Source: Inia geoffrensis
Lineage: Eukaryota > Chordata > Mammalia > Artiodactyla > Iniidae
NCBI GenBank assembly: GCA_036417435.1
Contig: CM070904.1
Coordinates: 20,814,835-20,878,834, forward strand
Direction: 5' to 3'
DNA length: 64,000 bases
The stretch's first letter is position 1, and each line of letters begins with the position of its first letter. Below the pieces are notes generated by a model. The model saw only the letters and a program-made list of their open reading frames with translations. It was not told the DNA's origin and made no database searches. Below, piece by piece: positions 6,211 through 52,327 of this stretch. The position numbers and the translations under genes were made by a program.

Positions 6211-6493
6211 GTTTTTTTAATTAATTAATTGGTTGCCTTGGGTTTGGTTGCGGTGCGCAGGCTACTCATTGGGTGGCTTCTCGTTGCCGAACACGCACTG
6301 GTTTGCGGGCTTCAGTAGTTGTGGCACGTGGGCTCAGTAGTTGTGGCTTGCCAGCTTGAGAATGCTGGCTCAGTATTTGTGGCGCACGGGCATAGTGGCT
6401 CTGCGGCATGTGGGATCTTTTCGGACCAGGACGCGAACCTGTTTCCCCTGATTGGCTGGTGAATTCTTAACCACTGTGCCACCAGGGAAGCCC
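6211..6493 (-). mobile_element. CHR-type SINE (long form), antisense
   Basis: A T-rich/TTAA run at the left is followed by the long SINE body ('cagtagttgtggcacgtgggctc') and the antisense tRNA-like head ending 'ccaccagggaagcccta'. It sits exactly between the MaLR LTR fragment and the first satellite sequence, so it may have sealed or post-dated that junction. Confidence 0.85.
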
Positions 6494-7056
6494 TAAATGT
6501 GTGACTCCATTTCTCTTCTTTAATTAGTTCATGTGTAGCCATTTTTAGATTCCACCTCTTAATGATATCTTATGATAAGTCTCTTTTTCTGTCTGACTTA
6601 TGTCACTTAGAATGATCATCCCTAAGTCCACCCGAGTTGCTGCAGCTGGCCTTATTTCATTGATTTCGTGGCTGATTAACTTTCCACTGTACATAAGTAC
6701 CACATCTTCTTTATCCGTTTTTCCTTCCAGGTACAATTAGGTTGTATCCAAGTGGAGGCTCTTGTAAACAGAGATGCACTAAAAGTTGGGTTCCCTGTGT
6801 CCTGTGAAATTTTGTTTTTCCCAAGATATGCGCCCATGAGTGGAAGTGCCATATGCTCTGTAGCTCCTTTTTTTAGATTTTTTAGGAGACACAATACATT
6901 CCTCCAGATTTGCCATTGGAAATTTACGTTCCTAGCGTCAGTGAAACAGGGCTCCCTTTTCTCCATGCCCTGTCCTGCTTTTCTGGTTTAGGCACTTTGT
7001 GATGATGGCCGATCTGACTGATACGAAGTGTTGATTTTCATTGTCTGCCTGTTTGG

Positions 7057-7127
7057 TTGGCAAAAAAGGGCGTATGCATTTTTCCTGAATATATTCAGAA
7101 AAAACGCATACGCCCTTTCTGGCCAAA
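7057..7127. repeat. Satellite palindrome copy P1
   Basis: Inverted repeat centred at 7091/7092 on GAATATATTC, with arms of about 35 bp holding GGGCGTATGC and its complement GCATACGCCC. A few mismatches and a one-base arm difference. Confidence 0.85.
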
Positions 7128-8775
7128 TGGATCATTGGCGTAGTTCAGCCGCTTTTCATGTGCTTTAACTGCGGGTCCAATCTACCTCTTGAAATCCCGT
7201 TCCTGCAATTCTGCCTTACATTCAAATCCTTTTTCGTGACTTACCTCAAGGCATTTTTCCATGTTAGGTATCTTTTACAATGCTGCAGGATTGTGAATTG
7301 CAGTGCCCCTGACCTCCATTTTTCAACTTGTTTCTTTGGGAACTGGCCACCAAACAGCAGGATTGCTTCAAGCCCTATTCTGGCTCCGAGGACAAGCTGA
7401 GCCTTTGGTCAATTCCTCTTTCTCATTGGAAATTAGAGTGACATGTGCCTGTCCAAACACCTAGGCTTTGCCTCTCATTGTTCCCCCTGTTCCAGTTCAT
7501 CCTGCGGACAAATTCCAAAGTGTGCAAAAGAGGGTGTTGAAGGTGCTGACTTCCCCAAGTGGGGCGATTGCCAGGAAAGAGGCTGGAGGTGGGAACCCGA
7601 CCAGTAGGAGATGAGGAGATGAGGCGGTTTTCTCAAACTCTTCCGATCCCATGGTGTACCATCCTCTGGGTGTCCCATGCATGTTTTAGCTGTACGAAGG
7701 GTGGCCTGCATCTGGAGATTTGGGACCCATGGAATCAGGACCAGGCAGCATTACTCTAAAGGGGCTGCATTTGCTGACTCATGCTCACCAAGCCTCTCAG
7801 CCCCATGAATGTCCAGCCTTAGGTCCCATCCAGCTGTGTGTTTAGATATGCCCAATCCAGCTTGCATCCCAGCCTGTGAGCGAATTCTGTAGGAATTTAT
7901 CTCTTTCTCAGTGTCTCTTTTTAAAATTTATTTCTATAAGGTGGTGTAGCTGATTTTCAGTGCTGTGTTTCTTGCTGCTGTACATACACTTGATTAACTT
8001 ACAGAGAGACATCGATAAATTCTTTTTCAGATTCTTACCAGTCGTATATAATCTTTTCCAGTGTGTAGAGTCCAGTCCTTTGAGCTTTAGAATAAGTCTT
8101 GTTGATTCCCTATTTGGTCTATGGAACGGTATCTGCTCATTTCAAACTCCTGGTTTATGCCTCACCTCAACTGACATTTGCACTCTAGCAATCATAAGTG
8201 TGTTTTCTAAATGTGTGATTCTGTGTCTCTCTTGTCATTTAGTTCATGTGTAGCAATGTTGATATTCCACCTATAACTGATATCTTATGATAAGTCTCTT
8301 TTTCTGTCTGACTTATGTCACTGAGAATGATCGTACCTAAGTACACCTGAGTTGCTGCAACTGGCCTTATTTCATGGCTGAGTTATATTCCATTGTACAT
8401 AAGTATCACATCTTCGTTATCCATGTTTTCCTTCCAAGGAGATTTCGGTTGTATCCAAGTCGAGGCTCTTGTAAACAAACCAGCACTAAACGTTGTGGTG
8501 CCTGTGTCCTATCGAGTGTTGCTTTTCCCAAGATATACGCCCATGAGTGGAAGTGCCGTATGCTCTGCAGCTTTGTTTCTGAGATTTTTGGGGGAAACAC
8601 AATACACTTCTCCAGAGTGCCAGTAAGAATTTACCGTTCCACAATCACCGTGAAAGAGCTCCCTTTTATCCATGCCCTATGCTGCATTTCTGGTTTTTAC
8701 ACTTTGTGAGGATGGCCTTCGGAGTGATGTGAAGTGATATCTCTTCGTAGTGTTGATTTGCACTGCGTGCCTCTT

Positions 8776-8849
8776 TGGTCGTCAAGAAGGCGCATATGCG
8801 TTTTTCCTGAATATGTTCAGGAAAAATGCATACGCCCATTTTGGCCAAT
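8776..8849. repeat. Satellite palindrome copy P2
   Basis: Centred at about 8813. Arms contain GCGCATATGCG and the partner ATGCATACGCCC. More diverged than the others, but still foldable along most of its length. Confidence 0.8.
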
Positions 8850-10411
8850 GGTATCGTTGAAGAAGTTCTATCTGTTTCCATTTGCTTTCATGGGGAGTGC
8901 AATCTTCCTCTTGAAAACCCCTTCCTGCAATTCTGCCTTGTTTTCTTGTCCTTTTTCGTGACTTACCTAAAGGCATTTTTTCCAGGATTGCTTCCAGCCC
9001 TATTCTGGTTTTGGTGGCAAGCTGAGCCTTTGGTCAATTCCTCTTCCTGATTGGAAATTAGAGTGGCATGTCTCTGTTCAGATACCCCGGGCTTGTCTCT
9101 CATGGTTCCCCCTCTTCCCCTTCATCCTCCAGACAAATTCCAAACTGTGAGAAACAGGATGTTGAAGGTGCTGACCTCCCCTGGTGAGTAGATTGTTAGA
9201 AAAGAGGCTGGAGCTGGGACCCGAGCACCAGGAGATGAGGAGATGAGGTGACTTCTCCAAGCTCTTCCCGATCAGACGATGTACCATCCTCTGTGTGTCC
9301 CATGCATATAGTAGCTCTAGGAAGGTTCCCCTGCACCTGGAGATTTGGGACCCTTGGAATGGGGCCAGGCAGTATTATTCTAAAGGTGCTGCATTTGCTG
9401 GCCCATCCTCACCACTTTTCTCACTCCACGAGTGTCCATCCTTAAGTCCCATCTCTCTGTGGGTCTAGATGTAGTCAATCCAGGTTGCATCAGAGACCCT
9501 GAAGGAATTCTGTAGGAATTTCTCTCTCTCACTGTCTTTTTTTAAAAAATTTTGTAATTTATTTTTATAATGGGGTACAGCTGGTTTTCAGTGTTGTGTT
9601 TCTTGTTGCTGTACATCTTCTTGATTCACTTACTGAGAGACCTCAATAAATTCTTTTTTAGATCCTTACCAGTCGTATATATACTTTTCCGGTGACTAGA
9701 GTGTTGTGAGCCCAGTTCTTTGAGCTATACAGTAGGTCCTGTCGATTAGCTATTTGGTTGGGAACCATATCTGTGCTAATTTCAACCTCATGGTTTATGC
9801 CTTACCCCACCCCACTTTTCACCTTTAGCAGCCATAAGTGTGGTTTCTAAGTGTGTGACTGTTTCTGTTTTGTAATTTAGTTCATGTGTAGCCATTTTAA
9901 GATTCCACCTGTAAGTGATATCTCATGATAAGTCTCTTTTTTCTGTCTGACTTAGGTCATTTAGAGTGATCATACCTAAGTCCACACGAGTTGCTCCAAC
10001 TGGCCATATTTCATTGATTACCTGGATGAGGTATATTCCATTGTCTGTAAGTACCACTTCTTCTTTACCCATTTTTCTTCCCCAAGGACATTTATGTTGT
10101 ATCCAGTTGGAGGCTCTTGTAAACAGAGCAGCACTAAACTTTGGGGTGCTTGTGTCCTGTAGTGTTTTGGTTTTCACAGGATATACATGCATGAGTGCAA
10201 GTGTCGTATGCTCTGTATCTCTGTTTTTTAAATTTTGTAGGAAACACAGTACACTTCTGAAGCCTGGCCGTTGGCAATTTACATTCCCACCATCAGTGTA
10301 GCAGGGTTCCATTTTCTCCAAGCCCTGTCCTGCATTTCTGGTTTTTACACTTTGTGAGGATAGCCCTTCTGACTGATTCGAATTGATACATCTTTGTAGT
10401 GTTGATTTGCA

Positions 10412-10432
10412 TGGCCAGCCCTTTTTGGCCAA
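10412..10432. repeat. Satellite palindrome copy P3, collapsed to its outer ends
   Basis: Where the full palindrome should lie, only TGGCCAGCCCTTTTTGGCCA remains: the first few bases of the left arm joined to the outer end of the right arm. This looks like a deletion of the hairpin core. Confidence 0.7.
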
Positions 10433-10835
10433 CTGCGTTATTGGTGAAGTTCAGCCGCTTTTTCATGTGCTTTAATGGCTAGTTCAATCTACCTCTTGAA
10501 ATTCCTTTCCTGCAATTCTGCCTTTCATTAAAATCCTTTTCCATGTCTTACCTGAAGACATTTTTCGATGATAGGTATCATTTTAAACCCTGCAGGTTTG
10601 TGAATTGCAGTGCTCCTGACCTCCATTTTTCAACTTGCTTCTTTGAGATCTAGCAACAAAACAGCAGGATTGCTTCAAGCCCTATTCTGGTTCGGGGGCA
10701 AGGTGAACCTTTGGTTAATTCCTCTTACTAAATGGAAATTAAAGTGGCATTTTCCTGTCGAAACACCTAGGGCTTGTCTCTCATGGTTCTCCCCCTTCCC
10801 CTTCATCCTCCGGACAATTATTTAAGAACTAATTT

Positions 10836-13380
10836 TTATAATGGGGTTTAGCGGATTGTCACTGCTGTGTTTATGCTGCTCTACACACACTTGATTCTCT
10901 TTTGGAGACATATCAGTACATAGGTTTTAAGATTCTGAGTAGTCAGGTATATTCCTATGCATTGAATACGGGGTGCTGAGTCCATTTCTTTGAGCAAGGA
11001 GTAGGTTCTGTCTATTATATATTTGGCTTATGGAACGGTATCTGTGCTAATTTCAATCTCTGGTGGTATGCAGCACCCCAACTCACCTTTCCCCTGAAGC
11101 ACGCATATGTTTGTTTTCTAAATGTGAGACTCTGTTCTGTTTTGTAATCCTGTTCCTATGTAGCCAAGTTTACCTTCCCTCTGTTAGTGATATCTTATGA
11201 TATCCTAAGTTTCTTTCTCTGTGCGATTTATTTCACTTAGAATCATCGTTCCTAAATCCACTCATTATGCTGCTACGGGCCTGATGACATTGATTTCATT
11301 CCTGAGTGACATTCCATTGTACGTAAGTACCACAACTTCCTTATCCATTTTTCTCTTTCTGGGATATTTAAGTGGTACCGTAGTCGAGGTTCTTGTAAAC
11401 AGAGCAGCCCCAAAGGTTGGGGTGGCTGTATCTTTTTCCATTTAATTTCCCTAAGCTATAGGAGCACACGTGGAAGTGCCCTAGGCTCTGTAGCTTTGGT
11501 TTTTCGATATTTCAGGAAACACCATTCACTTTTCCAGAGTGGCTGTTGGCAATTTACATCCCGTCCATCAGCCTAACAAGGCTCCCTGATCTCCGTGGCC
11601 TGCCCGGCCTTTATGGTTTTTACACGTTTTTCAGATGTCTCTTTTGACCAGTGGGAAGACAGACTCCATTTTAGTGCGGATTTCAATTACAGGCTTGATT
11701 GGTTGGTCAAAAAGGGCGTATGCGTTTTTTCCTGAATATATTCAGGAAAAAAACGCATACGCCGTTTTTGGCCAAGTGCATCATTGTGGACGTTCTGCCT
11801 CGTTTCCTCTGCTTTATATGCAATTCCAATCTACCTCCTGAAATCGCTTCCTACAATTTTGCCTCGCTTTCAAGTCCTCTTCGCAGCCTTACTTCAATAT
11901 ATTTTTGAACGATAGTTGTCCTTGATAACTCTGCAGGTTTGTAAAATGCAGTGCCCCTGAGCTCCTTTTTTCAACTCGCTTTCTGGTGAGCTGGCCGCCA
12001 AACCGCGGGATTGCTTCAGGCGCTGTGCTGGTTCCAGCTCGTCACGCTGAGGCTTTGCTTAATTCTTATTCTCGGTGGGAAATTCAGAGTTAAATGTGCC
12101 CGTCCAAACACCTACAGCTAGTCTCCCTTTGGTTCTCCCTATTCCTGTTCATCCTCTGCAGAATTTGCAAACTCTGCCCAACAGGAGGTCAAGGGCCCTG
12201 ACTCTCCAAGTGGGGAGATTGTTAGTAAAGCGTCTGGAATGGCGAATCCGAGTACCAGGGGACGAAAACTGAGATGCGTTTTAGAAACGTTGCCCGATCA
12301 TGCGGTGGAGCATCCCCTCGGTTACCCATGCATGTTTTACCTGAATGAAGAATCCCTTCAACCTGGAGAGTTGGGGCCCTTTGAGTGGCTAGCATGCAGT
12401 ATTATGTCAAAGCGTCTGCATTTGCTCACCGAACTTCATCAATCCTCTCAGCCCCAAGTGCCCAGCCTTATGTCTCACCCAGCTGTGGGTGTAGATGTGG
12501 GAAATCCAGGTTTCATCACAAGCCCTGAACGAATTATTTAAGAATTTTCTGTCTTTCACTGTCTTTGTATTTTGTTTGGGAAATAAATTTTTATAATGAG
12601 GTTTAGCGGATTGTCACTGCTGTGTTTATGCCGATCTACACACACTTGATTCTCTTACGGAGACATATCAGTACATAGGTTTTAAGATTCTGAGTAGTCA
12701 GGTATATTCCTATGCGTTGAATATGGGGTGCTGAGTCTATTTCTTTGAGCAAGGAGTAGGTTCTGTCTATTATATATTTGGCTTATGGAATGGTATCTGT
12801 GCTAATTTCAATCTCTGGTGGTATGCAGCACCCCAACTCACCTTTCCCCTGAAGCACGCATATGTTTGTTTTCTAAATGTGAGACTCTGTTCTGTTTTGT
12901 AATCCTGTTCCTATGTAGCCAAGTTTACCTTCCCTCTGTTAGTGATATGTTATGATATCCTAAGTTTGTTTCTCTGTGTGATTTATTTCACTTAGAATCA
13001 TCGTTCCTAAATCCACTCATTATGCTGCTACGGGCCTGATGACATTGATTTCATTCCTGAGTGACATTCCATTGTACGTAAGTACCACAACTTCCTTATC
13101 CATTTTTCTCTTTCTGGGATATTTAAGTGGTACCGTAGTCGAGGTTCTTGTAAACAGAGCAGCCCCAAAGGTTGGGGTGGCTGTATCTTTTTCCATTTAA
13201 TTTCCCTAAGCTATAGGAGCACACGTGGAAGTGCCCTAGGCTCTGTAGCTTTGGTTTTTCGATATTTCAGGAAACACCATTCACTTTTCCAGAGTGGCTG
13301 TTGGCAATTTACATCCCGCCCATCAGCCTAACAAGGCTCCCTGATCTCCGTGGCCTGTCCTGCCTTTCTGGTTTTTACAC
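10836..13380. repeat. Nearly identical adjacent satellite monomers, 1755-bp offset
   Basis: Sequence from about 10836 to 11625 recurs from about 12591 to 13380 with only scattered mismatches; for example GCGGATTGTC is at 10851 and again at 12606. The other visible monomers are far more diverged from one another, so this pair was duplicated or homogenised recently. Confidence 0.8.
11703..11775. repeat. Satellite palindrome copy P4
   Basis: Nearly perfect inverted repeat centred at 11738/11739. Differences are a one-base A-run expansion on the right side, one substitution in the right arm (GCCG for GCCC) and GGTCAA for GGCCAA on the left. Confidence 0.9.
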
Positions 13381-13457
13381 TTTTTTCAGATGTCTCTTTT
13401 GACCGGTGGGAAGAGAGACTCCATTGTAGTGCGGATTTCCATTGCAGGCTTGCTTGG

Positions 13458-13529
13458 TTGGCCAAAAAGGGCGTATGCTTTTTTTCCTGAATATATTCAG
13501 AAAAAAATTCATATGCCCTTTTTGGCCAA
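13458..13529. repeat. Satellite palindrome copy P5
   Basis: Centred at 13493/13494, exactly 1755 bp from P4. The left arm is nearly canonical; the right arm has substitutions (ATTCATATGCCC). Confidence 0.88.
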
Positions 13530-15192
13530 CTGCTTCCTTGTCGAAATTCTCCCGCCGTTCATGTGCTGTAAAGAAAAGTCCAATCTATCTCTTGAAATCT
13601 GTTTCCTGAATTTCTTTCTTGCTTTCAGATCCTCTTCGTTGCCTTACCTCAACATATTTTTGGACGTTAGTTTTCATTTATAAATCTGCAGGTTTGTGAA
13701 TTACAGTGACCCTGATCTCCATTTTTTAAGTTTTCTTGTGAGCTGGCCTCAAACCCGCAGGATTGCTTCAGGACTTATTTTGGCTCCGGGGAGTCAGGCT
13801 GAGCTTTTTTTTAATTCTTATTCTTAATGGGAAATTAGAGTGACATGTCCCCTTCCAAACCCCTACAACTATTCTCTCATTGGTTCACCCTCTTCCCGTT
13901 CATCCTCCTCACAATTTGCATAATGTGTGAAACAGAAGTTTACATGTGCTGATTCTCGAAGTGCGGAGATTCTAAGTAGCGTGGCTGGAATGGTGCACAG
14001 GAGCACCACGAGAGGATAAATGAGATGCATTTTAGACACATCTCCCGATCACATGGTGTACAGCCCTCTGGGTTTTCCATGCATGTTTTAGCTGTAGGAA
14101 GATCCCTTGAACCTGCAGATTTGGAACCCATTGAATGGGTACCAGGTAGTATTACTTTAAAGGGTGTGCATTTCCTCATCCAACCTCACATTTCTCTTAG
14201 CGCGAACAGTTTCCAGCCTTATGTCTCATCCTGCTGTGGGTCTAGAGGTGTTCAATCCATGTTGCATCACTGCCCCTGAGGAAAAGTTGTAAGAGGTTTT
14301 CTCTGTCTCTCTGTCGTTTATTTTTTTCAATTTATTATTACATTGGTTACAGCTGATTTTCAAAGCTCTGTTTCTTGCCGCTGTACATCCACTTGATTCA
14401 CGTACAGAGAGACATCAATAAATTCTTTTTCAGATTCTTACCAGTCGTATATATTCTTTTCCGGTGACTTGAGTGTGCTGAGTGCAGTTTTTTAGCTACC
14501 GTGTAGGCCTTGTTGATTATCAATTTGGTATTTGGAATGGTATCTTTGCTAATTTCAACCTCCTAGATAATGCCTCACCCCTCCCCACCTTTCCCGCTTA
14601 GCAGCCTTATGCATATTTTCTACATATTTGACTATGTTTTTCTTTTGTAATTTATTTCATGTGTACCATTTGGGATTCAACTTTTAAGTGATATCTTATG
14701 ATATGTGTCTTTTTCTTTTTGAATCATGTCACTTAGAATGATCATACGTAACTCCTCCGGAGTTGTTGCAACTGGCCATATTTCATTGATTTCCAGGCTG
14801 AGTAATATTCCACTCTACATAAGTACCACATCTCTATCCATTTTTTCCCCCCAGAGACATTTAAGTTATATCCTAGTCGGGGATCTTTTAAACAGAGAGG
14901 CGGTAAACATTGGGGTGCCTGTGTCCTCTCGATTTTTTTTTTCCCAAGATATACGCCCATGAGTGCAAGTGTCCTATGCTCTGTAGCTCATTTTTTAGGT
15001 GTTTTAGTAAACACAATACACTTCTCCAGAGTGGCCGTTGCCAATATACATGTTCACTATAAGCCTCACAGGGCTCCCTTTTCTCCTCGCCCTGTCCTGC
15101 ATTTCTGGTGTTTACACTTTATGAGGACGGCTCTTCTGACTGATGCGAAGTGTTATCTTTTGTAGTATTGATTTTCAGTGCCCACCTGTTTG

Positions 15193-15265
15193 GTTGGCAA
15201 AAAAAGGTTTATGCCCTTTTCTTGAATATATTCAGAAAAAAACACATACACCCTTTTTGGTCAAA
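15193..15265. repeat. Satellite palindrome copy P6
   Basis: Centred at 15228/15229. It keeps the TTGAATATATTCA core and outer ends, but both arms have independent substitutions in the GGGCGTATGC segment. Confidence 0.8.
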
Positions 15266-15905
15266 TGCAGTGTTGGCAATGTTCAGCGCCTTTTCTTGTG
15301 CTTAATGGCGAGTCTTTTCTACCTCTTCAAATCCCTTTCCTGCCATTCTCCCTTGCTTACAAGTCCTTTTCTGTGACTTTCCTCAAGACATTTTCCAGTG
15401 ACAGATATTTTCAACTATGCAGTTTCGTGAATTTTAGTGCCCCTGAGTTCCATTTTTCAACTTGTGTTTATGGGAACTGACCACAAAGCAGCGGGATTTC
15501 CTCAAGCCCTATTCTGTTTCCATGGGCAATCCTAGCCTTTGGTCAATTCGTCTTCCTGATTGGAAATTACAGTGACATGTGCCTGTCCGAACACCTAGGA
15601 CTTGTCTCTCTTTGTTCCTCATCCTTCCGCTTCATCCTCTTGACAAGTTCCAAACTGTGTGCAACAGGATGTTGACGGTGCTGACATCCCCAAGTGGGAA
15701 GATTGTTAGTAAAGACGCTGGAGGGGTGAACCCGAGCACCAGGAGATGAGGAGATGAGATGCCTTTTCCAAACTCTTCCCGTTCAGACTGTGTAACATCT
15801 TCTGGTTGTGACAGGCATGTTTTAGCAGTAGGAAGGGTCCCGTTCATGTAAGGAGAACACCAGGGCTTTTTCCAAATCAGTGTCTTCCCGAACCCCAAAC
15901 TGGGG

Positions 15906-19010: not shown

Positions 19011-20339
19011 GGGCACACAGGAACCATGCACATAGCCCTCATCGCAAAGCACCCCCAGCTCACCTGTCGCTCAGAGCTGACACAGAGCACCTCACAACAG
19101 GACTTGAACTAACAAACAGCAGCTCCAACAGGTCTGTGACCCTGAGCATCACTCTGTGCAGCCTCCCTCCACCTGGTCTTCCAGAGACTTCCACTGCACC
19201 CGGGGCACCAGGCTTCTGTCTGCACCCACCACCCACCCCTCCTCTCCCTGACTCCTGGGTTCCTCTCATTAGGAAAGGGTTTTCTTGAAGTTGTCTCCCA
19301 CTCATGGGCCAGATAAATGATTAGAAAACAAGCCAGAGCTGCAGCCCCTTGTCTATCCTGACTCTCAGGAGCCCACACCTGTTCCTTGGACCTGGCCGGT
19401 TCAGCAAGTTCCATTTTCTGCAACTGTGAGCCCCTGAGGGGTGATGATTGGCTGACCTGGGCAGCCTGACCCTGCCGGCCAGCCCTCCCCGGGTGTGCCT
19501 GGGTTGAGATCAATATAAACACCACTCCAGGCAGCAAGAGCCCCTGCAGCTGTGCCTGACGCCATATTCTCTGCCCTGTCAGCAGTCTCGGGTCTGGGCT
19601 GGTGGGAGGGAGTGAGAGGCCATGGCTTTTTGGGTGGCCTAGTGTGAGTGGGGCTCTGCTGGACTTTCTGTAGGAGTTGCCAGGCTGCCACCTGCTAAAG
19701 AAGAGGATGTGTCACCCATAACTGCCGCTGGAATTTATCCCTGGGCAGAGGTGAGGAAGGAAAAAAGCAGTGGGGCCTGGGACAGGAGGGGTATCTCAGG
19801 CAGGGAAATGGAAAGCTTCCAGAAGAGCGCCGGGGGCCAGGACCATCCTGGCTGGCCTGCAGGCACCAAGTCGGACGGCGTGCTGTCGCTCGTGTGGCTC
19901 CACGGCCCTTCTTCTAGGCTTTCAAATCCTTGTACATATTCAGGTGTTTTACCTGGGAAGGGTGGGAACAGTTCAGCAGCAGCTGGCCCGGGGCTCAGCT
20001 CACTTTTACTCACAGACGCCTCGGCAGGGTGCCCCAGTTTTGCAATGAGGACGCTTGTTGCGTGGGGGCTGCTGGCTGAATGGGAGACGATCCCCAACTC
20101 TGACCAACTTTAGAATTTTTTACAACTGGAGCAAGTGAAATGATACGGTTTTCCTCTGTGTAACTGGTGGGTTCTGTTTTTGTTTTTGTTTTTTTTCCTT
20201 TTTTTCATTTTTGGTTCAAGGTAGATTTTATTCCTCTTTTTTGTATTTCCAGATAAAAGCATGGAAATAATTTATTCATATAAATGTATGTGAAGGGAAG
20301 AACTTTTTTTTTCTGTTTTCCTTTTTCCAATTGTATTTT
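19011..20339. other. GC-rich anonymous DNA with a promoter-like patch
   Basis: No exon could be supported; open frames of 80-140 codons here fit GC-rich composition and occur on both strands. At 19447-19453 there is an inverted CCAAT (GATTGG) and at about 19511-19518 an ATATAAA box, followed by GC-rich sequence. The spacing resembles an LTR U3 or a Pol II promoter, but nothing downstream confirms either. A T-rich stretch runs from about 20170 to 20340. Confidence 0.3.
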
Positions 20340-21052
20340 TTTTTAATTTTGAATTTTATTTTATTTTTTTATACAGCAGGTTCTTATTGGTTATCTATTT
20401 TATACATATAACTGTATACATTCCAATCCCGATCTCTCAACTCCTCCCACCACCACCCACCACGACTTTCCCTCCTTGGTGTCCATACGTTTGTTCTCTG
20501 TTCATCTGTACATCTGTTGCTCTGTTTCTGCCCTGCAACCCGGTTCATCTGTACCATTTTTCTAGGTTCCACATATATGCATTAATATATAATATTTGTT
20601 TTTCTCTTTCTGACTTACTTTACTCTGTATGACAGTCTCTAGATCCATCGACGTCTCTACAAATGACCCAATTTCATTACTTTTTACGGCTGAGTAATAT
20701 TCCATTTTATATATGTACCACATCTTTATGCATTCGTCTGTCTGTGGGCATTTACGTTGAATCCATTACCTGGCTATTTTAAATAGTCATGCAATGAACA
20801 TTGTGGTGAATGTTTCTTTTTCGTTTATGGTATTGCTGGGTATATGCCAGGTAGTGGGATTACTGGGTCATATGGTAATTCAATTGTTAGTTTTCTAAGG
20901 AACCTCCATACTATTCTCCATAGAGACTGTATCAATTTACATTCCCAACAATAGTGGAAGAGGGTTCCTTTTCTCCACAGCCATTCCAGCATCTGTTGTT
21001 TGTATAATTTTTGTTGATGCCCATCCTAACAGGTGTGAGGTGATACCTCATT
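20340..21052 (-). mobile_element. L1 3' end, antisense
   Basis: Well-preserved antisense L1 3' end: 'ttatacagcaggttcttattggttatctatttt', 'ggctgagtaatattccatttt', 'ccatactattctccatagagactgtatcaatttaca', ending at 'aggtgtgaggtgatacctca'. It stops in the middle of L1 and continues directly into satellite sequence. Confidence 0.9.
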
Positions 21053-22166
21053 CTTGAGTCTCTTTCGTTGAGCAAGGAGTAGGTCTTGTCTATTACATAT
21101 TTGAAACGGTATCTGTGCTAATTTCAGTCTCTGGTATTATGCAGCACCCCAACTCACCTTTCCGCATAAGCAAGCATAAGTTTGTTTTCTAAATGTGAGA
21201 CTCTGTTCTGTTTTTTAATGCAGTTCATGTATAGCCAAGTTTACATTCCCTCTATTAGTGATATCTTATGATAAGTTTCTTTTTCTGTGTGACTTATTTC
21301 ACTTACAATCATCACACCTAAATCCACTCATTACACTGCTATGGGCCTGATGACATTGATTTCATTGCTGAGTGATGTTCCATTGTAAATAAGTACCAAA
21401 ACTTCTTTATCCATTTTCCTCTTTTTGGGATATTTAAGGTGTATCACACTTGAGGTTCTTGTAAACAGAGCAGCCCCAAACTTTGGGGTGGCTGTATCTT
21501 TTTCCTTTTAATTTTCCTAAGCTATAGGGCCATAAGTGGAAGCGCCCTGGGCTCTGTAGCTTTGTTTCTTAGATGTTTCCGGAAACACCATTCCCTTCTC
21601 CAGAGTGGCTGTTGGCAATTTACATCCCTCCCATCAGCATAACAAGGCTACCTGATCTCCATGGCCTGTCCTGCCTTTCTGGTTTTTACACTTTTTTCAG
21701 ATGTCTCTTGACCGGTGGGAAGAGAGACTTCATTGTAGTGCGGATTTCCATTGCACACTTGCTTGGTTGGCCAAAAAGGGCGTATGCGTTTTTTCCTGAA
21801 TATATTCAGGAAAAAACGCATACGCCCTTTTTGGCCAAGTGCATCATTGTCGACGTTCTGCCTCTTTTCCTATGCTTTAAATGCAATTCCAATCTACCTC
21901 CTGAAATCTGTTTCCTGCAATTGTGCCTCGCTTTCAAGTCCTCTGCGCAGCCTTACTTCAATATATTTTTGGACGATAGTTGTCCTTTATAACTCTGCAG
22001 GTTTCTGAAATGCAGTGCCCCTGAGCTCCTTTTTTCAACTCGCTTTCTTGTGAGCTGGCTGCAAAATTGCAGGATTGCTTCAGGCCCTATTCTGTTTCCG
22101 GCATGGCACGCTGAGTCTTCTGTTAATATTTTTTCCTGGTGGGAAATTAGAGTTAATTGTGCCCAT
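21053..22166. repeat. Partial satellite monomer
   Basis: Begins inside the L1-like half at 'ctttcgttgagcaaggagtaggtcttgtc' (the same phrase is at about 28764) and runs through the palindrome into the unknown-origin half up to 'gtgcccatc' at about 22168. It belongs to the same class as the units at 10.85-13.7 kb and 28.6-30.5 kb. Confidence 0.85.
21767..21838. repeat. Perfect 72-bp palindrome (satellite copy P7)
   Basis: Both 36-base arms are exact reverse complements with no loop, centred at 21802/21803 on GAATATATTC. The outer ends are TTGGCCAAAAAGGGCG and its complement. Every other copy in the window has at least one mismatch. The outer arm resembles mariner hairpin MITE ends. Confidence 0.97.
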
Positions 22167-22372
22167 CATGAGAGTACATCTTCATGACCTTGGATTTGAT
22201 CATGATTTCTTAGATCTACCAAAAGCACAAGCAACAAAAGACAAAATAGATGAATTGGACTTCCTCAGAATGAAAAACAGTTGTTTATAAAAGGAGCAAG
22301 GAATAAGATAATCCACAATTCAAAATGGCCCAAGATGTTTGCAAACCATGTATCTGATAAAGGACTGTAGCC
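22167..22372 (+). mobile_element. L1 ORF2 3'-region scrap, sense
   Basis: Sense fragment with the late-ORF2 order: 'gatcatgatttcttagat', 'caaaagcacaagcaacaaaagacaaaatag', 'ttggacttcctcagaatgaaaaac', 'tgtatctgataaaggactgtagcc'. It carries internal deletions and starts exactly where the satellite is interrupted. Confidence 0.8.
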
Positions 22373-23479: not shown

Positions 23480-26400
23480 GGTGAGGCCTTAGGAAGGGCC
23501 AGTGTCAGAGCCTCAGAGATAACTTGAAGAGAGTTCAGGCTGTTACGGACATCGTCAGAGATGCACTTAGGGACATATTCAGGGCCTTACTTATGGACAG
23601 GATCAGGGCATTATTTAGTGACAGCTTAGACTATAAGGGACAGCATCAGGGCCTAAGTTAGGGACAGTGTCAGTGCTTCACTTAGAGATAACGTGAGAGC
23701 CTTAGTTAGACAGAGTTCAGGCTGTTACTTAGGGATATCTTCAGGGCTTTAGAGCCAGCATCATGGCCATAATTAGAACCAGTGTAAGGGCATTAGTTAG
23801 GGCCAAAACTAGGGTGTTAGTTAGGGAAAGAGTCGGGTCATTAGTTACAGACAGTGTCAGGGCTTTAGGTAGGGACAGCGGCAAGTCCTTAGTTAAGAAG
23901 AGTTTTGGGGCCTCACTTAGGGGCAGCGTCAGGATGTTAGTTAGGGAGAGTCAGGACATTAGAATTTCAGACTCTGAGGTAGAGACAGCATCAGGGCATT
24001 AGTTAGGGACAGCGTCAGAGACTTACCTAGGGACATATTCAGGGCCTTAATTATGGACAGGACCAGGGTAATACAGAGGAACACCTAAGGGTATTAGGGA
24101 CATCTTCAGGGCCTCAATTAGTGATAGCATCAGGGTATTAGTTAGGGAAAGAGTCAGGCCATTATTATAGATACAATGCCTTATGTAGAGAGAGCATTAG
24201 GGCCTTAGTTAAGGACAGCGTCAGAGACATACTTAGGGACATATTCAGGGCCTTCGTTATGGACAGGATCAGGACGTTATTGAGAGATACATGAGGGTAT
24301 TAGGGACAGCATCAGGGTGTTAGGGAAAGAGTCAGCCGTTATTATAGACAGTGACAGTGCCTCAGGTAGAGACAACATCACAGCCTTAGTTAGGAAGAGG
24401 GTCAGGGCCTTGGTGAGGGACAGGGTCAGGCCAACAGTGAGGGACATCTAAGGCTATTAGGGACATTGTCAAGGCCTTAGATTGGGCCAGCATCAGGGCT
24501 GTAGTATCGACCAGTGTCAGAGCATTAATGAGGGACAAAATTAGGGTGTTAATTAGGGAAAGAATCAGGTCATTAGTTACAGACAGTTTTAGGGCTTCAG
24601 GTAGAATCGGCATCAAGGCCTTAGTTAGGAAGAGCATCAAGGCCTCAGTTAGGTTCAGCATCAGGATGTTAGTTACAGCCAGCAACAGGGCCTTAGTTAG
24701 GGACAGTGTTGTCAGGCCCTCAGAGATCACTTGAGGGCCTTCATAAGAGACAGTGTAGGCCGTTAGCTAGGGACACTTCAGAGACTTTCTTAGGGATGTA
24801 TTCAGGGCCTTAGTAACAGAATCAGGGTGTTATTTTGTGACTGCTTAGGCACTAAGGGACAACATCAAAGCCTAAGTTAGGGTGTCAGCGTCTTGGGGAT
24901 AGTGTTAGGGACTTTGTAAGTTATAGCTTAGGCCATGAGCTAGGGACAGTGTCAGGGGCTAATTAAGGGCAGTGTCAGAGTCTTAATGAGGGACATCTTC
25001 AAGGCCTTAGTTATGGACAGGATCAGGTCCATACTTGGGACCAGTGTCAGGCCGTTATTTAGGGGCAGTGTCACAGCCTTCTGTAGAGACAGCATCAAGG
25101 CCCTTAGGAAGAGGGTCAGGGCCTTAGGACAGGGTCAGAGACGTCCTCAGTCACATATTCAGGGCCTTAGTAATGGACAGGATCAGGACCCCAGTGAGGG
25201 ACATCTAAGTCTATTAGGGACATCGTCAGGGCCTTAGATAGGGTCAGCATCAGGGCCGTAGTTAGGACCAGTGTCAGGGCATTATTTAGGGACAAAATTA
25301 AGATGTTAGTTAAGGAAAAAGTCAGGAAATTAGTTACAGACAGTGTCAGCTTCTCAGGTAGAGACTTCAAGGTCTCAGAGAGAGCATCAGCATCTCAGGT
25401 AGGGGATGCATCAGGCCATTACTTACAGACAGTGTCAAGGCCTTAATTAGGGAGAGTGTCAGAGCCTCAGAGAGAAACTTGAGGGCCTTAGTAAGAGACA
25501 CGTCAGGCTGTTCGTTAGGAACATCATCAGGGTGTTAGTTTAGGACAGGGTCAGGGTATTAGTGAAAGACAGCTCAGGCAATTAGGCACACCGTCAGGGC
25601 CTTGGGTAGGGGCAGCGTCAGGGAGTAGTTGGGGAAAGAGTGAGGCCGTTAGGTAAAGACAGACTCAGGGCCTTAGTTAGAGACAGTGTCAGCTTCTTCG
25701 TTAGGGACACTGTCATGGCCTCAGTGAAAGATAACTTGAGCGTCGTAGAGATAGTGCCAGGGCCTTAGTTATGGACATCTTTAGGGCCTCAGTTAGAGGT
25801 AATTTGAGGGCCTTAGTAAGAGACATTTTGGGTCATTAGTGACATCGTCTGGACCTTAGTGCCGTCTTCAGTACATCATTTATTGGCCGCATCAGGGCAT
25901 TAATGAGGGACAGCTCAAGTTATTAGGGACCATGTCAGGGTCTTAGTTAGGGAATGTGTCAGGAACTTTGTTAGAGAAAGAGTGAGGCCAGTAGTTAAAG
26001 ACGGACTCAAGGCCTTAGTCAGAGACAGCCTCAGTCCTTAATTAGGGAGAGAGTCAGGGCCTCAGTTAAAGATAAGTTGAGGGCCTTTGTTAAGGACAGC
26101 CTCCATGCCTCAGTTAGAGACGGGCTCATGGCCTCGGGACTAAATTCAGGGCCTTAGTTCGGGACAGCATCAGGGATTTAGTTAGCATAAGAGACTCGAC
26201 ATTAGCTAAAGACAAGGTTAGGTTAAGGTCTAGGAATAGCGCCAGGAAATGACATAGGGATAGTGTCAAGACCATAGCTACTTAGAGCATCAGTGCCTAA
26301 TTTAGGACCAGTGTCAGGGCTTCAGGAAGGGACAACGTCAGAGCCTGAATTAGGGAGAGCGACAGGGCCTGAGTGAGGCCTGGAGTCAGGGCCTTAGCTG

Positions 26401-28080
26401 GGGGCAGTGTCAGGGCATGTCTAAGGAGCAGCATAAGGGCCTTGGTAGGAGCAGCCTAAGGGGTTTGTTAAACACATTATCAGGGCCTCTGTTAGAGACA
26501 GCCTCACCGACTCACTTAGGGACAGCGTCAAGGCTTACTTTGGGACAGTTTCAGGATCTTAATAAAACATGAGCCAGGATATAATGATCTCAGGATACTG
26601 TCAGGACTTTAGATATTGACGGCAGCAGGGCCTTAGATAGGGACAGTGTCAAGGCCTCAGATAAGACTAGCACCTGTGTCTCTCTTATGTACCGTGTCAG
26701 GGCCTGGGTTAGGAATAGTGTTAGGGCCATAGTTAGGGACAGTGTCAGGGCCGGATTTAGGATGAGCATCTGGGCCTTAGTTAGGGACAGTGTCATGGCT
26801 TTGGGACTAAATTCAGGGCCTGAGGTATTCACAGCATAAGGGCTTCAGTTAGCATAAGAGGCAGGAAAGTTGCTAGGGACAGGGTTAGTGTAAAGTTTCG
26901 GGATCGTGTCAGGAAATGATCTAGGGAAACTGTCAAGACCTTACTCACTGAGAGTATCAGGGCCTTATTTAGAACCAGTATCAAGGATTCAGGTAGGGAC
27001 AGCGTCAGTGCCTGACTTAGGGAGAGCGATAGGGCCTGAGTGAGGCCTAGCATCAGGCCCTTAGCTGGGGACAGTGTCAGGGCATGATGTAGCAGTATCA
27101 TCAGGCCCTTTGTTGGATCAGCATTAGGGTCTTAGTTAAAGACATGATCAGGGCCTGAGGTAGTCACAGCGTCAAGGCCTCAGTTAGGCATAGCGTCAGG
27201 GCCTGAGTTAGGCACAGCCTCAGGACTTCACTTAGGGACAGAGACAGGGCTTTCTTAGGGACAGTGTCAGGACCTAGGTTATAAATGGGTCAGGATAATA
27301 GCTCAGGATAGTGTCCGGAATTTAGGTATTGCCAGCAGCAGGGCCTGTATTAGGGACAGATTCCAGGCCTTAGTTAGAGACAGTGTCAGGGCCCTAGTTA
27401 GGCCTAGTCTGCGGCCTTAGTTAGGGAGAGCATTAGGGCTTCTGTGAGGATAAGAGGCAGGAAGTTAGCTTGGGACACAGTCAGCTTCCAGTCCAGGGAT
27501 AGTGTCAGGAAATGAGCTAGGGGTAGCGTGAAGACCTTAGTTATTGAGAACATCAGGGCCTTAGTTATGACCAGTGTCAGCGCCTTAATCAGGACCAGTG
27601 TCAGGGCTTGATGTAGGTCTAGCATCAGAGCCTAAATAATGTACGGCAAGAGGGCCTAAGTGAGGCCTATCTTTAGGGCCTGAGTTAGGGACAGTGTCAG
27701 GGCATGACTTAGGAGTAGTATAAGGGCCTCTGTAGGATCAGCATTAGGGTCTTGGTTAAAGACATTCTCAGGGACAGCCTCAGGGCCTCACTTAGGGACA
27801 GCATCAGGGTTTACTTTGGGACAGTTTCAGGACCTTGGTAAGACATGGGTCTGGATATTAGCTCAGGATAATGTCAGGACTTTAGATATTGATGGCAGCA
27901 GGGCCTTAGTTAGACACAGTGTCAGGGCCTGCGTTAGGACTAGGATCTGGGCCTCTACTAGATACCGTGTCAGGGCCTAAGGTAGAAATAGTGTTAGGGC
28001 TTTAGTGAGGGACAGTTCTGGGCCAGATTTAGTAGGAGCATCTAGGCCTCCGTTAGGAACAGTGTCACGGCCTTCGGACT
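23480..28080. repeat. Degenerate 24-bp minisatellite, about 4.6 kb
   Basis: Variations of a 24-base unit with core GGGACAGTGTCAGGGCC followed by TTAGTTA recur almost throughout. Copies are diverged, with frequent short insertions and deletions that create longer spacings (for example 'gggacatattcagggcctta' variants). Because 24 is divisible by 3, long frames appear on both strands; on the reverse strand they read as eight-residue repeats of the type ALTLSLTK. The array is bounded by anonymous DNA on the left and by satellite on the right at about 28080. Confidence 0.9.
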
Positions 28081-30572
28081 TGGTTAATTCTTCTTCCTGG
28101 AGGGAAATTAGAGTAAAATGTGCCCGTCCAAACACCTACAGCTAGTCTCCCATTGGTTCTCCCTATTCCTGTTCATCCTCTGCAGAAATTGCAAACTGCC
28201 CAACAGGAGGTCAAGGGCCCTGACTCTCCAAGTGGGGAGATTGTTAGTAAAGCGTCTGGAATGGCGAATCCGAGTAGCAGGGGACGAAAACTGAGATGCG
28301 TTTTAGAAACGTTGCCCGATCACGCGGTGGACCATCCTCTCGGTTTCCCATGCATGATTTACCTGAAGGAAGAATCCCTTCAACCTGGAGAGTTGGGGCC
28401 CTTTGAGTGGCTAGCATGCAGTATTATGTCAAAGCGTCCGCATTTGCTCACCGAACCCCATCAATCCTCTCAGCCCCAAGCGTCCAGCCTTATGTCTCAC
28501 CCAGCTGTGGGTGTAGATGTGGGAAATCCAGGTTTCATCACAAGCCCTGAACGAATTATTTAAGAATTTCTGCCTATTTCACTGTCTTTGTGTTTTGTTT
28601 TGGAAATTTATTTTTATAATGGGGCTTAGCTGATTGTCACTGCTGTGTTTATGCCGCTCTACACACACTTGATTCTCTTATGGAGCCATATAAATACATA
28701 GGTTTTAAGATTCTGAGTAGTCAGGTATATTCCTGTGTGTTGAATACGGGGTGCTGAGTCCATTTCGTTGAGCAAGGAGTAGGTCTTGTCTATTACATAT
28801 TTGGCTTATGGAACGGTATCTGTGCTAATTTCAATCTCTGGTTGTATGCAGCACCCCAACTCACTTTTCCCCTTAAGCAAGCATATGTCTGTTTTCTAAA
28901 TGTGAGACTCTCTTCTGTTTTGTAATCCAGTTCATGTGTAGCCAAGTTTACATTCCCTCTGTTAGAGATATGATAAGTTTCTTTCTCTGTGCGATTTATT
29001 TCACTTAGAACCATCGTTCCTAAATCCACTCATAATGCTGCTATGGACCTGATGACTTTGATTTAATTGCTGAATGATATTCCATTGTACGTATGTACCA
29101 CAACTTCTTTATCCATTTTTTCCCTTTCTGGGATAATTAAGTTGTACCTTAAACGAGGTTCTTGTACGCAGAGCAGCCCATAATTTGGGATGGCTGTGTC
29201 TTTTTAATTTTCCTAAGCTATAGGAACATAAGTGGAAGTGCCCTAGGCTCTGTATCTTTGTTTTTTAGATGTTTCAAGAAAAACCATACACTACTCCAGA
29301 GTGGCTGGTGGCAATTTACATCCCGCCCATCAGCATAACAAGGCTCCCTGTTCTCCTTGGCCTGTACTGCCTTTCTGGTTTTTACACTTGTTTCAGGTGA
29401 CCCTTTTGACCGGTGGGAACTGAGACTTCTTATTAGTGCCGATTTGCATTGCCCACTTGCTTGTTTGGGCAAAAGGGCGTATGCGTTTCTTCCTGAATGT
29501 ATTCAGGAAAAAACGCATACGCCCTTTTTGGCCAAGTGCATCATTGTCGACGTTCTGCCTCTTCTCCTATGCTTTAAATGCAATTCCAATCTACCTCCTG
29601 AAATCTGTTTCCTGCAATTGTGCCTCGCTTTCAAGTCCTCTTCGCAGCCTTACCTCAATATATTTTTGGACGATAGTTGTCCTTGATAACTCTGAAGATT
29701 TGTGCATTGCAGTGGCCCTGAGCTCCTTTTTTCAACTCGTTTTTTATGAGCTGGCTGCCAAACGGCGGGAATGCTTCAGGCCCTATTCTGGTTCCTGGGC
29801 GGCAGGCTGAGCCCTTCGTAAATTCTTCTTCCTGATGGGAAATTAGAGTGACATGTGCCCGTACAAACACCTACAGCTGGTTTCTCATTGGTTCCCCCTA
29901 TTCCTGTTCATCCTCCGCACAGATTGTAAACTGTGCGAAACCGGAGGTTAAAGGCGTTGACTCTCCAAGTGGGGAGAATGTTAGTAAAGCGGCTGGAATG
30001 CAGAACCCGAGGACCAGGAGAGGAAAAATGGGGTGTGTTTTAGAAACATTTCCTGGTAACTCAGTGTTTCATCCTCTGTGTTTCCCATGCATGGTTTAAC
30101 TGTGGGGAGATTCCTTTAAACCTGGTGAGTTGGGACCCATGGAATGGGTAGCACGCAGTATTGCTCTAAAGGGTCTGCATTTGCTCACCCAACCTCACCA
30201 ATCCTCTCAGCCACAAGTGTCCAGCCTTATGTCTCATCCAGATTTGGGTGTAGATGTGGTCAATCCAGGTTGAGTCACAGCCCCTGAATGAATTTTGTAG
30301 GAATTTCTCTCTTTTTCGCTGTCTGTGTGTTTTGTTTTTGAAATTTATTTTTATAATGGGGTTTAGCTGATTTTCACTGCTGTGTTTTTGCCGCTCTACA
30401 CACACTTGCTTCCCTATGGAGATATATCAATACATAGATTTTACGATTCTTACTAGTCAGATATATTCCTCTGCGGTGAATAGGGGGTGTTGAGTGCAGT
30501 TCGTTGTGCAAGGAGTAGGACTTGTCTATTATATATTTAGATTATGGAATAATATCTGTGGTAATGCACGTG
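28081..30572. repeat. Satellite monomers (about 1.4 units), last block
   Basis: It starts in the unknown-origin half at 'ttaattcttcttcctgg' and goes through an L1-like half (28600-29460), palindrome P8, a second unknown-origin half, and the start of another L1-like half that is cut at about 30572 by a SINE. The block 28105-28620 is nearly identical to 12060-12590, about 16 kb away. Confidence 0.85.
29463..29535. repeat. Satellite palindrome copy P8
   Basis: Centred at about 29499. The right arm is canonical (ends GCATACGCCCTTTTTGGCCAA minus its first base). The left arm has a few substitutions: TTGGGCAAAAGGGCG and a GTATTC core. Confidence 0.88.
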
Positions 30573-30765
30573 TTGTGGAGCACTGACTCTAGGTGCACCG
30601 GCTACAGTAGTTGTGGCCTTCAGACTCAGTAGTTGTGGTGCATGGGCATAGCTGCTCCACCATACGGATCTTCCCTGACCAGGATCTTCCCTGACCAGGG
30701 CTCGAACCCATGTCCCCTAGTGTTGGCAGGCGAATTCTTAACCATTGCATCACCAGGGAAGTCCC
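30573..30765 (-). mobile_element. CHR-type SINE, antisense, 3'-truncated
   Basis: Only the head-proximal part is present, ending 'catcaccagggaagtccc'. A direct duplication of the phrase 'gatcttccctgaccagg' lies at about 30667-30700 inside it. Confidence 0.8.
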
Positions 30766-30922: not shown

Positions 30923-31160
30923 GGGAGGCTGCAATTTTATTTTATTTTTTATTATTTTTTTAACATCTTTATTGGAGTATAATTGCTTTACAGTGATGTG
31001 TTATTTTCTGCTTTATAACAAAGGGAATCAATTATACATATGTATATGTTCCCATATTTCTTCCCTCTTGCATCTCCCACCCTCCCTATCCCACCCCTCT
31101 AGGTGGTCACAAAGCACCAAGCTGCCCTCCCTGTGCTATGCAGCTGAGGGAGGCTGCAGT
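30923..31160 (-). mobile_element. 5'-truncated L1 insertion with target-site duplication, antisense
   Basis: Antisense poly(A) (T-rich) at 30936-30960 is followed by L1 3'UTR ('taacatctttattggagtataattgctttacagtg') to about 31147. The direct repeat GGGAGGCTGCA lies at 30923-30933 and again at 31148-31158, continuing (A/G)TTTTA with one mismatch. A textbook short L1 insertion. Confidence 0.9.
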
Positions 31161-32149
31161 TTTAAAAGAATGAGATAAATTATACACACAAACTCCCAAT
31201 ATTTCCTGAAACATTGCAATCTGAAACCCTATTGTAGGAAGCAGAAGATTCCAGGAGACATTCTACAAAAGAAGCACTCTAAACACTGTGTTTGGATAAG
31301 GAATTCTGGAAGGAAGTTATCCTCATCCAAGGAGAGAAGGTTCCTATACTTGGTAACATCACATCCCTGTAAGATTCCCACTGATCTTGGTCCAGGCATT
31401 CTCACTCCTCTTGAGAGACATCTATGGCCATATCCTGGAATGTCAGCAGTCCCTGAAATTAAAGGTATACATGCCATGTGGCCACAGGAAGAGTTCATAA
31501 TGTGACCCAAGAAGAAAACAACAAGTTAAGAGAACTTGTTTTAATTTAGAAGAGTGTCTTGAATTATCCACTAATATATATTTTTATTTATTTATATATT
31601 TACAAAGTAACTTTCTCTACCTTATTTCTAACTACAAGAAAACAGTGTGGCATGTGATCCACAAAATCAGTATAGAGACTATACGTATCTGGAAAAGAAA
31701 TGATGAAATGATGGTTTCAACACAGGCATATGCATTTTTGAGTGTTTTATTTATATCAAACTGGATAAAATGTGTGTATTTCTCAGACACAAAAGATACG
31801 TCGTGGTAAGAATGTATCTTTCAGCTATTCATGGGTACACAAGTACACTGGGAGATTGTAAAAGTTCTGATTGTGATTCAGTAGGTCCGGTGGGCCTGAG
31901 CTCTATTCTTTGAACAAGCTCACTTTTAAATAGTGATGCCACAGTCTATGATTCATTAACCACAATTGGGAATAGCAGAGACATAAGAAGGAAAGGTAAA
32001 AATTCATAGTTAACTTTGAACTTAAAGTGTTTTATGGATTTTACACCTGTAATAGAATAGTAAGCACAGCAGCAACAATCATCTGTGAGTATTTACTATA
32101 AACCGTGTATCTTCCTAACATTTTTGTGTAGGATTCCAGGATAAAGGCC
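31161..32149. other. Anonymous DNA
   Basis: About 1 kb with no recognised repeat or supported exon. A short AT-rich stretch lies at about 31575-31605. Confidence 0.4.
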
Positions 32150-52213: not shown

Positions 52214-52327
52214 ATATGTTCCATTAAAGCATTTCAAGTAAAATCCTGCAGCAGGCTCCTATAAATATGACATACATTAGGGTAGGCTGCTGCAGGATTT
52301 TACTTGAAATGTTTTAATGGAACATAT
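52214..52327. repeat. 114-bp hairpin: 41-bp arms with one mismatch, 32-nt loop
   Basis: The left arm 52214-52254 begins ATATGTTCCATTAAAG; the right arm 52287-52327 ends with its complement. They differ at one position (C versus T in the middle). It lies in the intron of LRRC37 copy A. No named element recognised. Confidence 0.95.

What the first reader, a model, noticed from the sequence alone, without database searches (positions are those of the whole stretch)
6494..15905. Satellite monomer is a mosaic of antisense L1 3' end, hairpin and unknown DNA
Each 1.72-1.76 kb unit begins with about 850-900 bp that tracks, phrase by phrase, the antisense L1 3' end, far more diverged than the ordinary L1 copies at 16030 and 20340. 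It then has a palindrome of about 72 bp and about 750 bp with no recognised origin. This suggests the satellite arose from one locus where an L1 3' end sat beside a hairpin element and was then amplified. If it is the common cetacean satellite, the L1 ancestry dates its birth after that L1 subfamily. I do not know whether this composition is already described.
Basis: partly seen in the sequence, partly recalled or inferred. Interest (0 to 1): 0.75.

Follow-up and report, generated by a model that had tools for sequence, protein, structure and literature searches.

The report
Old L1-derived whale satellite with hairpin
A decayed tandem repeat in what looks like whale DNA is built from the tail end of a jumping gene (L1) with a small hairpin probably nested inside it; an L1 origin of a whale satellite was published in 1998, so the core of the finding is known and only the nesting and decay details may be new.

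Summary
The L1 observation holds. The window carries about 13 kb of a ~1.75-kb tandem repeat: the reported array (6,494-15,856) and two further pieces (21,054-22,167; 28,077-30,565). About 875 bp of each unit is antisense L1 3' end: a satellite profile hits L1s in the window at up to E=1.8e-55, and the reverse-strand consensus matches human L1 ORF2p 1153-1273 at E=3.9e-6. The idea is not new: Kapitonov, Holmquist and Jurka (1998), seen only as cited, derived the common cetacean satellite from the L1 3' end. That this array is that satellite is likely but untested; no reference sequence or cetacean genome could be reached.

Correction: L1 similarity resumes in register for about 95 bp beyond the hairpin in 3 of 4 type-A units and in none of 4 type-B units (recalled L1 letters). 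The hairpin therefore probably inserted into the L1; it resembles mariner-type hairpins. About 600-700 bp remains unidentified.

Units form two families (A and B, 70-75% identical to each other) with patchy homogenisation: an old, decaying array. The hairpin is the stretch best conserved between A and B (85% against 72%): suggestive of past constraint, not proof.

The parts
6494..7050 (-). L1-derived part of unit 1 (antisense), left end cut by a SINE
7057..7126 (.). hairpin, unit 1
7127..7225 (-). stretch where L1 similarity resumes, unit 1 (right end approximate)
   Evidence: 8 of 2000 shuffles as good
7226..7916 (.). unidentified remainder, unit 1
   Evidence: no other window match, no Pfam match of the consensus remainder
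7917..8782 (-). L1-derived part, unit 2
8783..8848 (.). hairpin, unit 2
8849..9546 (.). post-hairpin stretch and remainder, unit 2 (shortened); L1 resumption not significant here
9547..10415 (-). L1-derived part, unit 3
10416..10432 (.). remnant of the hairpin, unit 3 (rest deleted)
10433..10530 (-). stretch where L1 similarity resumes, unit 3 (right end approximate)
   Evidence: 0 of 2000 shuffles as good
10531..10817 (.). truncated remainder, unit 3
10821..11702 (-). L1-derived part, unit 4 (family B); 10,904-11,602 is 99% identical to the next unit
11703..11775 (.). hairpin, unit 4
11776..12571 (.). post-hairpin stretch and remainder, unit 4
12572..13457 (-). L1-derived part, unit 5 (family B)
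13458..13530 (.). hairpin, unit 5; an old lineage switch in this unit falls near it
13531..14319 (.). post-hairpin stretch and remainder, unit 5 (75% to unit 4)
14320..15193 (-). L1-derived part, unit 6 (family A)
15194..15264 (.). decayed hairpin, unit 6
   Evidence: z=-1.18
15265..15365 (-). stretch where L1 similarity resumes, unit 6 (right end approximate)
   Evidence: 0 of 2000 shuffles as good
15366..15856 (.). truncated remainder, unit 6
21054..22167 (.). isolated satellite piece (family B) with a perfect 72-nt palindrome at 21,767-21,838
28077..30565 (.). satellite piece of about 1.4 units (family B), hairpin at 29,465-29,535

Best explanation
This is a degenerate array of an L1-derived cetacean satellite, most likely the common cetacean satellite. 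The unit arose where a 5'-truncated L1 3' end lay in ordinary DNA. A mariner-type hairpin element inserted into that L1, and a segment of about 1.75 kb (L1, hairpin and flanking DNA) was amplified in tandem. Unequal exchange and gene conversion spread and patchily homogenised units into at least two families. The units here are no longer kept alike and are decaying. Shown: L1 ancestry, the hairpin, the family structure, one homogenised tract. Partly shown: hairpin nested in the L1. Inferred: mariner origin, single-locus birth, identity with the published satellite, no present function.
For: L1 DNA match. Match to human L1 ORF2p 1153-1273, E=3.9e-6. The tail end of the consensus, with a T-rich run, matches the L1 end at 30,935-31,170 (1 of 1000 shuffles as good). 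L1 resumes in register after the hairpin in 3 of 4 A units (0, 0 and 8 of 2000 shuffles). Hairpin arms match bovine small-RNA arms printed in PMC7653039 and PMC6203363 at 17 of 21 and 17 of 23 nt; no non-satellite position of about 102,000 reaches that. Families A and B. A 99% tract of about 700 bp between two units that are 75% identical in their last 820 bp. L1 origin of the cetacean satellite in print.
Against: No published satellite sequence and no cetacean genome could be reached: the genome search was unanswered nine times and the pattern scans found nothing. Four other L1 ends of the window match the tail weakly (40, 272, 326, 275 of 1000 shuffles as good). The resumption past the hairpin rests on recalled L1 letters; the fourth A unit and all 4 B units show no signal (251-739 of 2000), a human-protein test failed (584 of 2000), phmmer gave no hit, unanchored alignment gave 32 to 788 of 1000 in nine rows, and the window's own decayed L1 gave 60 of 500. 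The mir-548 match is below Rfam's threshold and a control hairpin scores as high with unrelated families.
Confidence: 0.75

Rival explanations
1. It is a different L1-derived satellite, independent of the common cetacean satellite, born from a similar L1 end.
For: No sequence of the published satellite was available; the hairpin is not mentioned in the passages I read.
Against: Unit length of about 1.75 kb (published length recalled) and L1 3' composition agree with the published satellite as cited.
Confidence: 0.15
2. It is a local segmental duplication of one L1-bearing locus, low in copy number, and not a satellite.
For: Only about 13 kb is seen, diverged and interrupted, in a window with an LRRC37-like gene; genome-wide copy number could not be measured.
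Against: Three separate places in the window carry the repeat in different phases, and several units are head to tail.
Confidence: 0.1
3. The hairpin is not a mariner-type element but a fold-back palindrome made when the tandem array formed, at the junction of the L1 with other DNA.
For: Any strong hairpin matches many miRNA families; L1 resumption after it is not seen in the B units.
Against: L1 resumption in 3 of 4 A units; similarity of the arms to bovine hairpin arms.
Confidence: 0.2

Closest known systems
Common cetacean satellite (Kapitonov, Holmquist and Jurka 1998; original not held, seen only as cited)
   Same: Satellite monomer similar to the 3'-terminal part of mammalian L1 (passages in PMC9659126 and PMC6947457); unit length about 1.75 kb (recalled)
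   Different: Units here are diverged, truncated and interrupted; the hairpin is not mentioned in the passages I read; no sequence was available to compare
mir-548 (Rfam RF01061), which I recall to derive from the mariner hairpin MADE1
   Same: Lowest E-value (2e-10) of 4227 Rfam families for the hairpin at 21,760-21,843, sharing GGTTGG and AAAAG at matching places; not among the 48 matches of a control hairpin
   Different: 52.9 bits, below the gathering score of 90; the control hairpin reaches 58.7 bits with another family
Bovine miR-2284/2285-type hairpins (mariner origin recalled, not verified)
   Same: Arms printed in PMC7653039 and PMC6203363 match 17 of 21 and 17 of 23 nt without gaps; PMC3962357 ties such an arm to the miR-2284/2285 family
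   Different: 4 of 21 and 6 of 23 positions differ; no cetacean copy outside the satellite was available
Other transposon-derived satellites: Tetris in Drosophila virilis (PMC4079207, listing only) and mariner in Messor ant satellite DNA (table row in PMC9659126)
   Same: Satellite built from transposable-element parts
   Different: Here an L1 end and a hairpin element would be combined in one mammalian unit

Membership tests
L1-derived satellite | Unit contains L1 sequence beyond chance | tested here: met
   E=1.8e-55 to an L1 in the window; ORF2p match E=3.9e-6
L1-derived satellite | Tandem head-to-tail arrangement | tested here: met
   Colinear self-matches with unit spacings of about 1.64-1.76 kb
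Common cetacean satellite | L1 3'-terminal part in the monomer | tested here: met
   feature as described
Common cetacean satellite | Sequence alignment with the published satellite | not testable with these tools
   No reference sequence held; original paper not held
Common cetacean satellite | High copy number in cetacean genomes | not testable with these tools
   The genome search unanswered
Common cetacean satellite | Host is a cetacean | tested here: inconclusive
   SINEs of the window look like the CHR type of cetaceans and relatives; recalled, no species assignment was possible
mariner-type hairpin element | Terminal inverted repeats related to known mariner ends | tested here: inconclusive
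   17 of 21 and 17 of 23 nt to bovine hairpin arms from papers; mir-548 lowest E-value but below threshold; control hairpin reaches similar scores with other families
mariner-type hairpin element | Insertion at TA with duplication of TA | tested here: inconclusive
   Ungapped match to a recalled L1 plus mariner-end junction: 22-27 of 36 nt on the left in 7 units, 20-27 of 35 on the right in 8 units; part of this is the hairpin itself, no shuffle control was run, and TA is not preserved
Centromeric satellite with CENP-B box | CENP-B box | tested here: not met
   At up to 1 mismatch 7 matches in the window, none inside the satellite pieces

The most novel reading that the evidence does not exclude
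While the satellite was alive, the nested transposon hairpin was its constrained or actively conserved core, and the hairpin began to decay only when the array died. Between families A and B it is 85.1% identical against 72.0% (sd 3.4) elsewhere, with 0 of 1432 non-overlapping same-size windows as high; within A it is merely average (81.0 against 79.9%). It has 2 of 70 A/B fixed differences against 207 of 1545 elsewhere, yet ordinary variation within A (19 of 70 against 304 of 1037). One old switch between unit lineages also falls at it.
Probability: 0.13. Interest if true: 0.6.

Novelty: new member of a known kind. Interest (0 to 1): 0.3.

Why it matters
The core claim, L1 ancestry of a cetacean satellite, is in print. 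What the window may add is a readable fossil of such a satellite: two families, a homogenised tract, and a nested hairpin that is better conserved between the families than anything else in the unit. If the hairpin proves to be a conserved part of living arrays, it becomes a concrete candidate for how a transposon-born repeat is kept uniform or recognised in heterochromatin.

Tried and rejected
Tried without result: pattern scans of viral contigs for the satellite, L1 and the hairpin (0 matches each) and of genome contigs for the hairpin and L1 (0 each); distant BLAST of one L1 copy against plasmids and phages (no match); six-frame Pfam scan of the consensus remainder (none); Rfam at gathering scores on the whole window (none); CENP-B box (none in the satellite).

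Failed tests of the nested-hairpin claim: human ORF2p against the stretch after the hairpin (584 of 2000 shuffles as good); phmmer of that stretch (no hit); the window's own long L1 at 39-41 kb against that stretch (60 of 500 as good; that copy is itself decayed there); unanchored local alignment with recalled L1 (nine rows, 32 to 788 of 1000 as good). Only the anchored test is positive: 4 of 9 rows (three A units and the consensus).

Rejected: that homogenised tracts regularly end at the hairpin. The R3/R4 switch at 936 and the R4/R7 switch at 958 share one unit (R4) and may be one event; the R4/R6 switch is at 840, the 99% tract ends about 100 bp before the hairpin, R3/R6 switches near 1,204, and family A shows no switch in 6 pairs. 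In the permutation check R3/R4, R4/R7 and R3/R6 exceed 300 permutations; R3/R7, R6/R7 and R3/R8 do not, and R4/R6 was not in it. The cuts inside R3/R4 that bound the 99% tract had no permutation test of their own. Rejected: compensatory evolution of the arms; 2 pairs changed on both sides and 1 compensated in 6 units.
Full report
What is there. Self-comparison of the window shows a tandem repeat of about 1.75 kb at 6,494-15,856 and two further pieces, 21,054-22,167 and 28,077-30,565, that the finding did not include. Tandem Repeats Finder does not list it because its longest period is 500. Eleven pieces were aligned; the consensus is 1,745 bp, 43% G+C. The longer units fall into family A (starting at 6,494, 8,208, 9,848 and 14,621; 76.8-81.3% identical) and family B (11,119, 12,874, 21,190 and 28,897; 81.1-89.0%); A-B pairs are 70.0-75.0%. 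Three short tails match the 11,119 unit at 88.8-95.0% and the 12,874 unit at only 66.4-72.3%. That the host is a cetacean rests on recalled SINE features; it was not tested.

L1 part. A profile of the satellite, rotated to begin at the L1 tail, gives five hits in four L1 copies of the window, the best with E=1.8e-55 at 20,374-21,052; the weakest is 11.6 bits, and the best in 20 Markov sequences of 49,950 bp is 4.6 bits. An independent test needs no L1 DNA: the reverse-strand translation of the consensus matches human L1 ORF2p residues 1153-1273 of 1274, E=3.9e-6 for the whole sequence (3.9e-5 for the stretch itself). So the unit contains the very end of ORF2 followed by the 3' UTR. The tail end of the consensus, with a T-rich run, matches the L1 end at 30,935-31,170 (1 of 1000 shuffles as good), while four other L1 ends of the window match it weakly (40, 272, 326, 275 of 1000). 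Satellite and L1 copies are 59-70% identical, and the L1 copies are 60-70% identical to each other. The satellite is therefore not clearly more diverged than the L1s of this window.

Hairpin. Seven of eight units that span the site keep a palindrome of about 72 nt; the copy at 21,767-21,838 is perfect. As single-stranded DNA 6 of 7 fold 5.6 to 15 standard deviations better than shuffles; the copy at 15,194 does not. The unit at 9,848 keeps about 17 nt of it. The arms match bovine small-RNA arms printed in PMC7653039 (listed there as bta-miR-AB-156) and PMC6203363 (listed under bta-miR-2285l and bta-miR-2421) (passages) at 17 of 21, 17 of 23 and 17 of 23 nt; the best of about 102,000 non-satellite positions reaches 15, 15 and 16. 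PMC3962357 assigns such an arm to the miR-2284/2285 family (passage). Among 4227 Rfam families the lowest E-value is mir-548 (2e-10; 52.9 bits, gathering 90); I recall that mir-548 derives from the mariner hairpin MADE1. A control hairpin elsewhere in the window reaches 58.7 bits with an unrelated family, though not with mir-548, so this counts little. A mariner-type origin is likely but not proven.

Is the hairpin inside the L1? ORF2 similarity runs up to the hairpin (score 75 just before it). After it, an anchored global alignment of the next 94 nt to the next 95 nt of L1 is significant in three of four A units (0, 0 and 8 of 2000 shuffles as good) and in the consensus (16 of 2000), not in the fourth A unit (444) nor in the four B units (251 to 739); the following 95 nt show nothing in any of nine rows. 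The L1 letters are recalled, but they align with the window's L1 over 39,800-40,131 and encode a stretch that aligns without gaps to 49 residues of human ORF2p. Protein and unanchored tests of the same stretch failed, as did the window's own decayed L1. I take nesting as probable, about 0.75.

Remainder. About 600-700 bp per unit matches nothing else in the window and no Pfam family in six frames. By inference it is the DNA that flanked the L1 on both sides, joined when the segment became tandem.

Evolution. Units 10,819-12,571 and 12,572-14,319 are 99% identical over about 700 bp (10,904-11,602 in the first) but 75% identical over their last 820 bp (single switch LLR 89.8 against at most 11.1 in 300 permutations), as expected from gene conversion or unequal exchange. 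Family A shows no such tract in 6 pairs. K2P distance without CpG is 0.225 within A, 0.144 within B and 0.316 between. Eight SINE copies of the window lie 0.063-0.153 from their consensus and 0.08-0.39 (mean 0.244) from each other. Half of the A-B distance, 0.158, is at the top of the SINE range: the families are about as old as the older SINE copies here. No date is claimed.

Hairpin conservation. Over all pairs the hairpin window is 85.4% identical against a mean of 77.2% (sd 2.8); 11 of 1569 windows are as high, and the ten shown all overlap it. Between A and B it is 85.1% against 72.0% (sd 3.4, maximum 79.6%; 0 of 1432 non-overlapping windows as high). Within A it is average (81.0 against 79.9%; 3 pairs; 583 of 1260 windows as high) and within B only somewhat above (93.2 against 85.7%; 137 of 1432). 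Fixed A/B differences are 2 of 70 against 207 of 1545 (binomial 0.003; but 51 of 1432 windows are as low, about 0.04 by rank). Variable sites within A are 19 of 70 against 304 of 1037 (p=0.79) and within B 9 of 70 against 370 of 1556 (p=0.04). The consensus hairpin holds 4 CpG (observed/expected 1.33 against 0.23-0.34 in the other parts), but single copies hold 0 to 5. Two readings fit: constraint while the array was alive, or late arrival of the hairpin by transfer between families. Against late transfer, flanking sites are not depleted in A/B differences (15 of 49 at columns 801-850, 4 of 25 and 3 of 25 next to the hairpin, 8 of 50 at 971-1020, with an average of 13%). The units are few and the effect is modest.

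What is known. Reviews state that the common cetacean satellite monomer resembles the 3' end of L1, citing Kapitonov, Holmquist and Jurka 1998 (passages in PMC9659126, PMC6947457, PMC6471113, PMC8909793); 13 held papers contain the phrase of that title (listing). The original is not held, so I cannot say whether it describes the hairpin. Full-text searches combining cetacean satellite with L1, mariner, palindrome, MITE or telomere-to-telomere assemblies (the lists of 16, 31 and 60 were capped at 20 of 44, 12 of 244 and 15 of 33) listed no paper whose title or opening abstract describes a hairpin in this satellite; many older subscription papers are not in the library. The finless porpoise telomere-to-telomere paper (passages of PMC11403816) reports predicted centromere monomers of 99-201 bp, unlike this repeat.

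Verdict. Checking the draft against the calls changed the wording on L1 divergence, SINE yardstick and bovine arms; it did not require a change of the odds.

Noticed in passing
57,594-61,988: Imperfect 60-bp and 368-bp repeats with open stretches encoding proline/glutamate-rich pieces; three of them given to Pfam match LRRC37 (PF15779; E=1.2e-28, 3.2e-7, 4e-8).
   Followed up: partly
about 23,480-28,075: About 4.5 kb of degenerate 24-bp minisatellite (TTAGGGACAG..TCAGGGCC-like) that ends where a satellite piece begins at 28,077.
   Followed up: no
52,214-52,327: A 115-bp inverted repeat, 87% complementary, unrelated to the satellite hairpin; no Rfam family reaches its gathering score.
   Followed up: partly
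21,054: An antisense L1 fragment (20,330-21,054) ends where a satellite piece begins, at non-matching phases of the L1 part (850 against 161), so it is not a homologous junction; no satellite was found on the far side of the L1.
   Followed up: partly
6,248-6,493 and 30,573-30,764: SINE copies abut or nearly abut the satellite at the left edge of the array and at the right edge of the 28-kb piece; by eye no target-site duplication is evident at 6,494.
   Followed up: no
about 39,510-39,728: A SINE inserted in an old L1, with GAGTGTACAAGAG on both sides.
   Followed up: no
PDB 9d2f_J (not in the window): A chain named CFAP61 carries a stretch matching the C-terminal region of L1 ORF2p (E=5.8e-13), as if an exon came from L1.
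   Followed up: no
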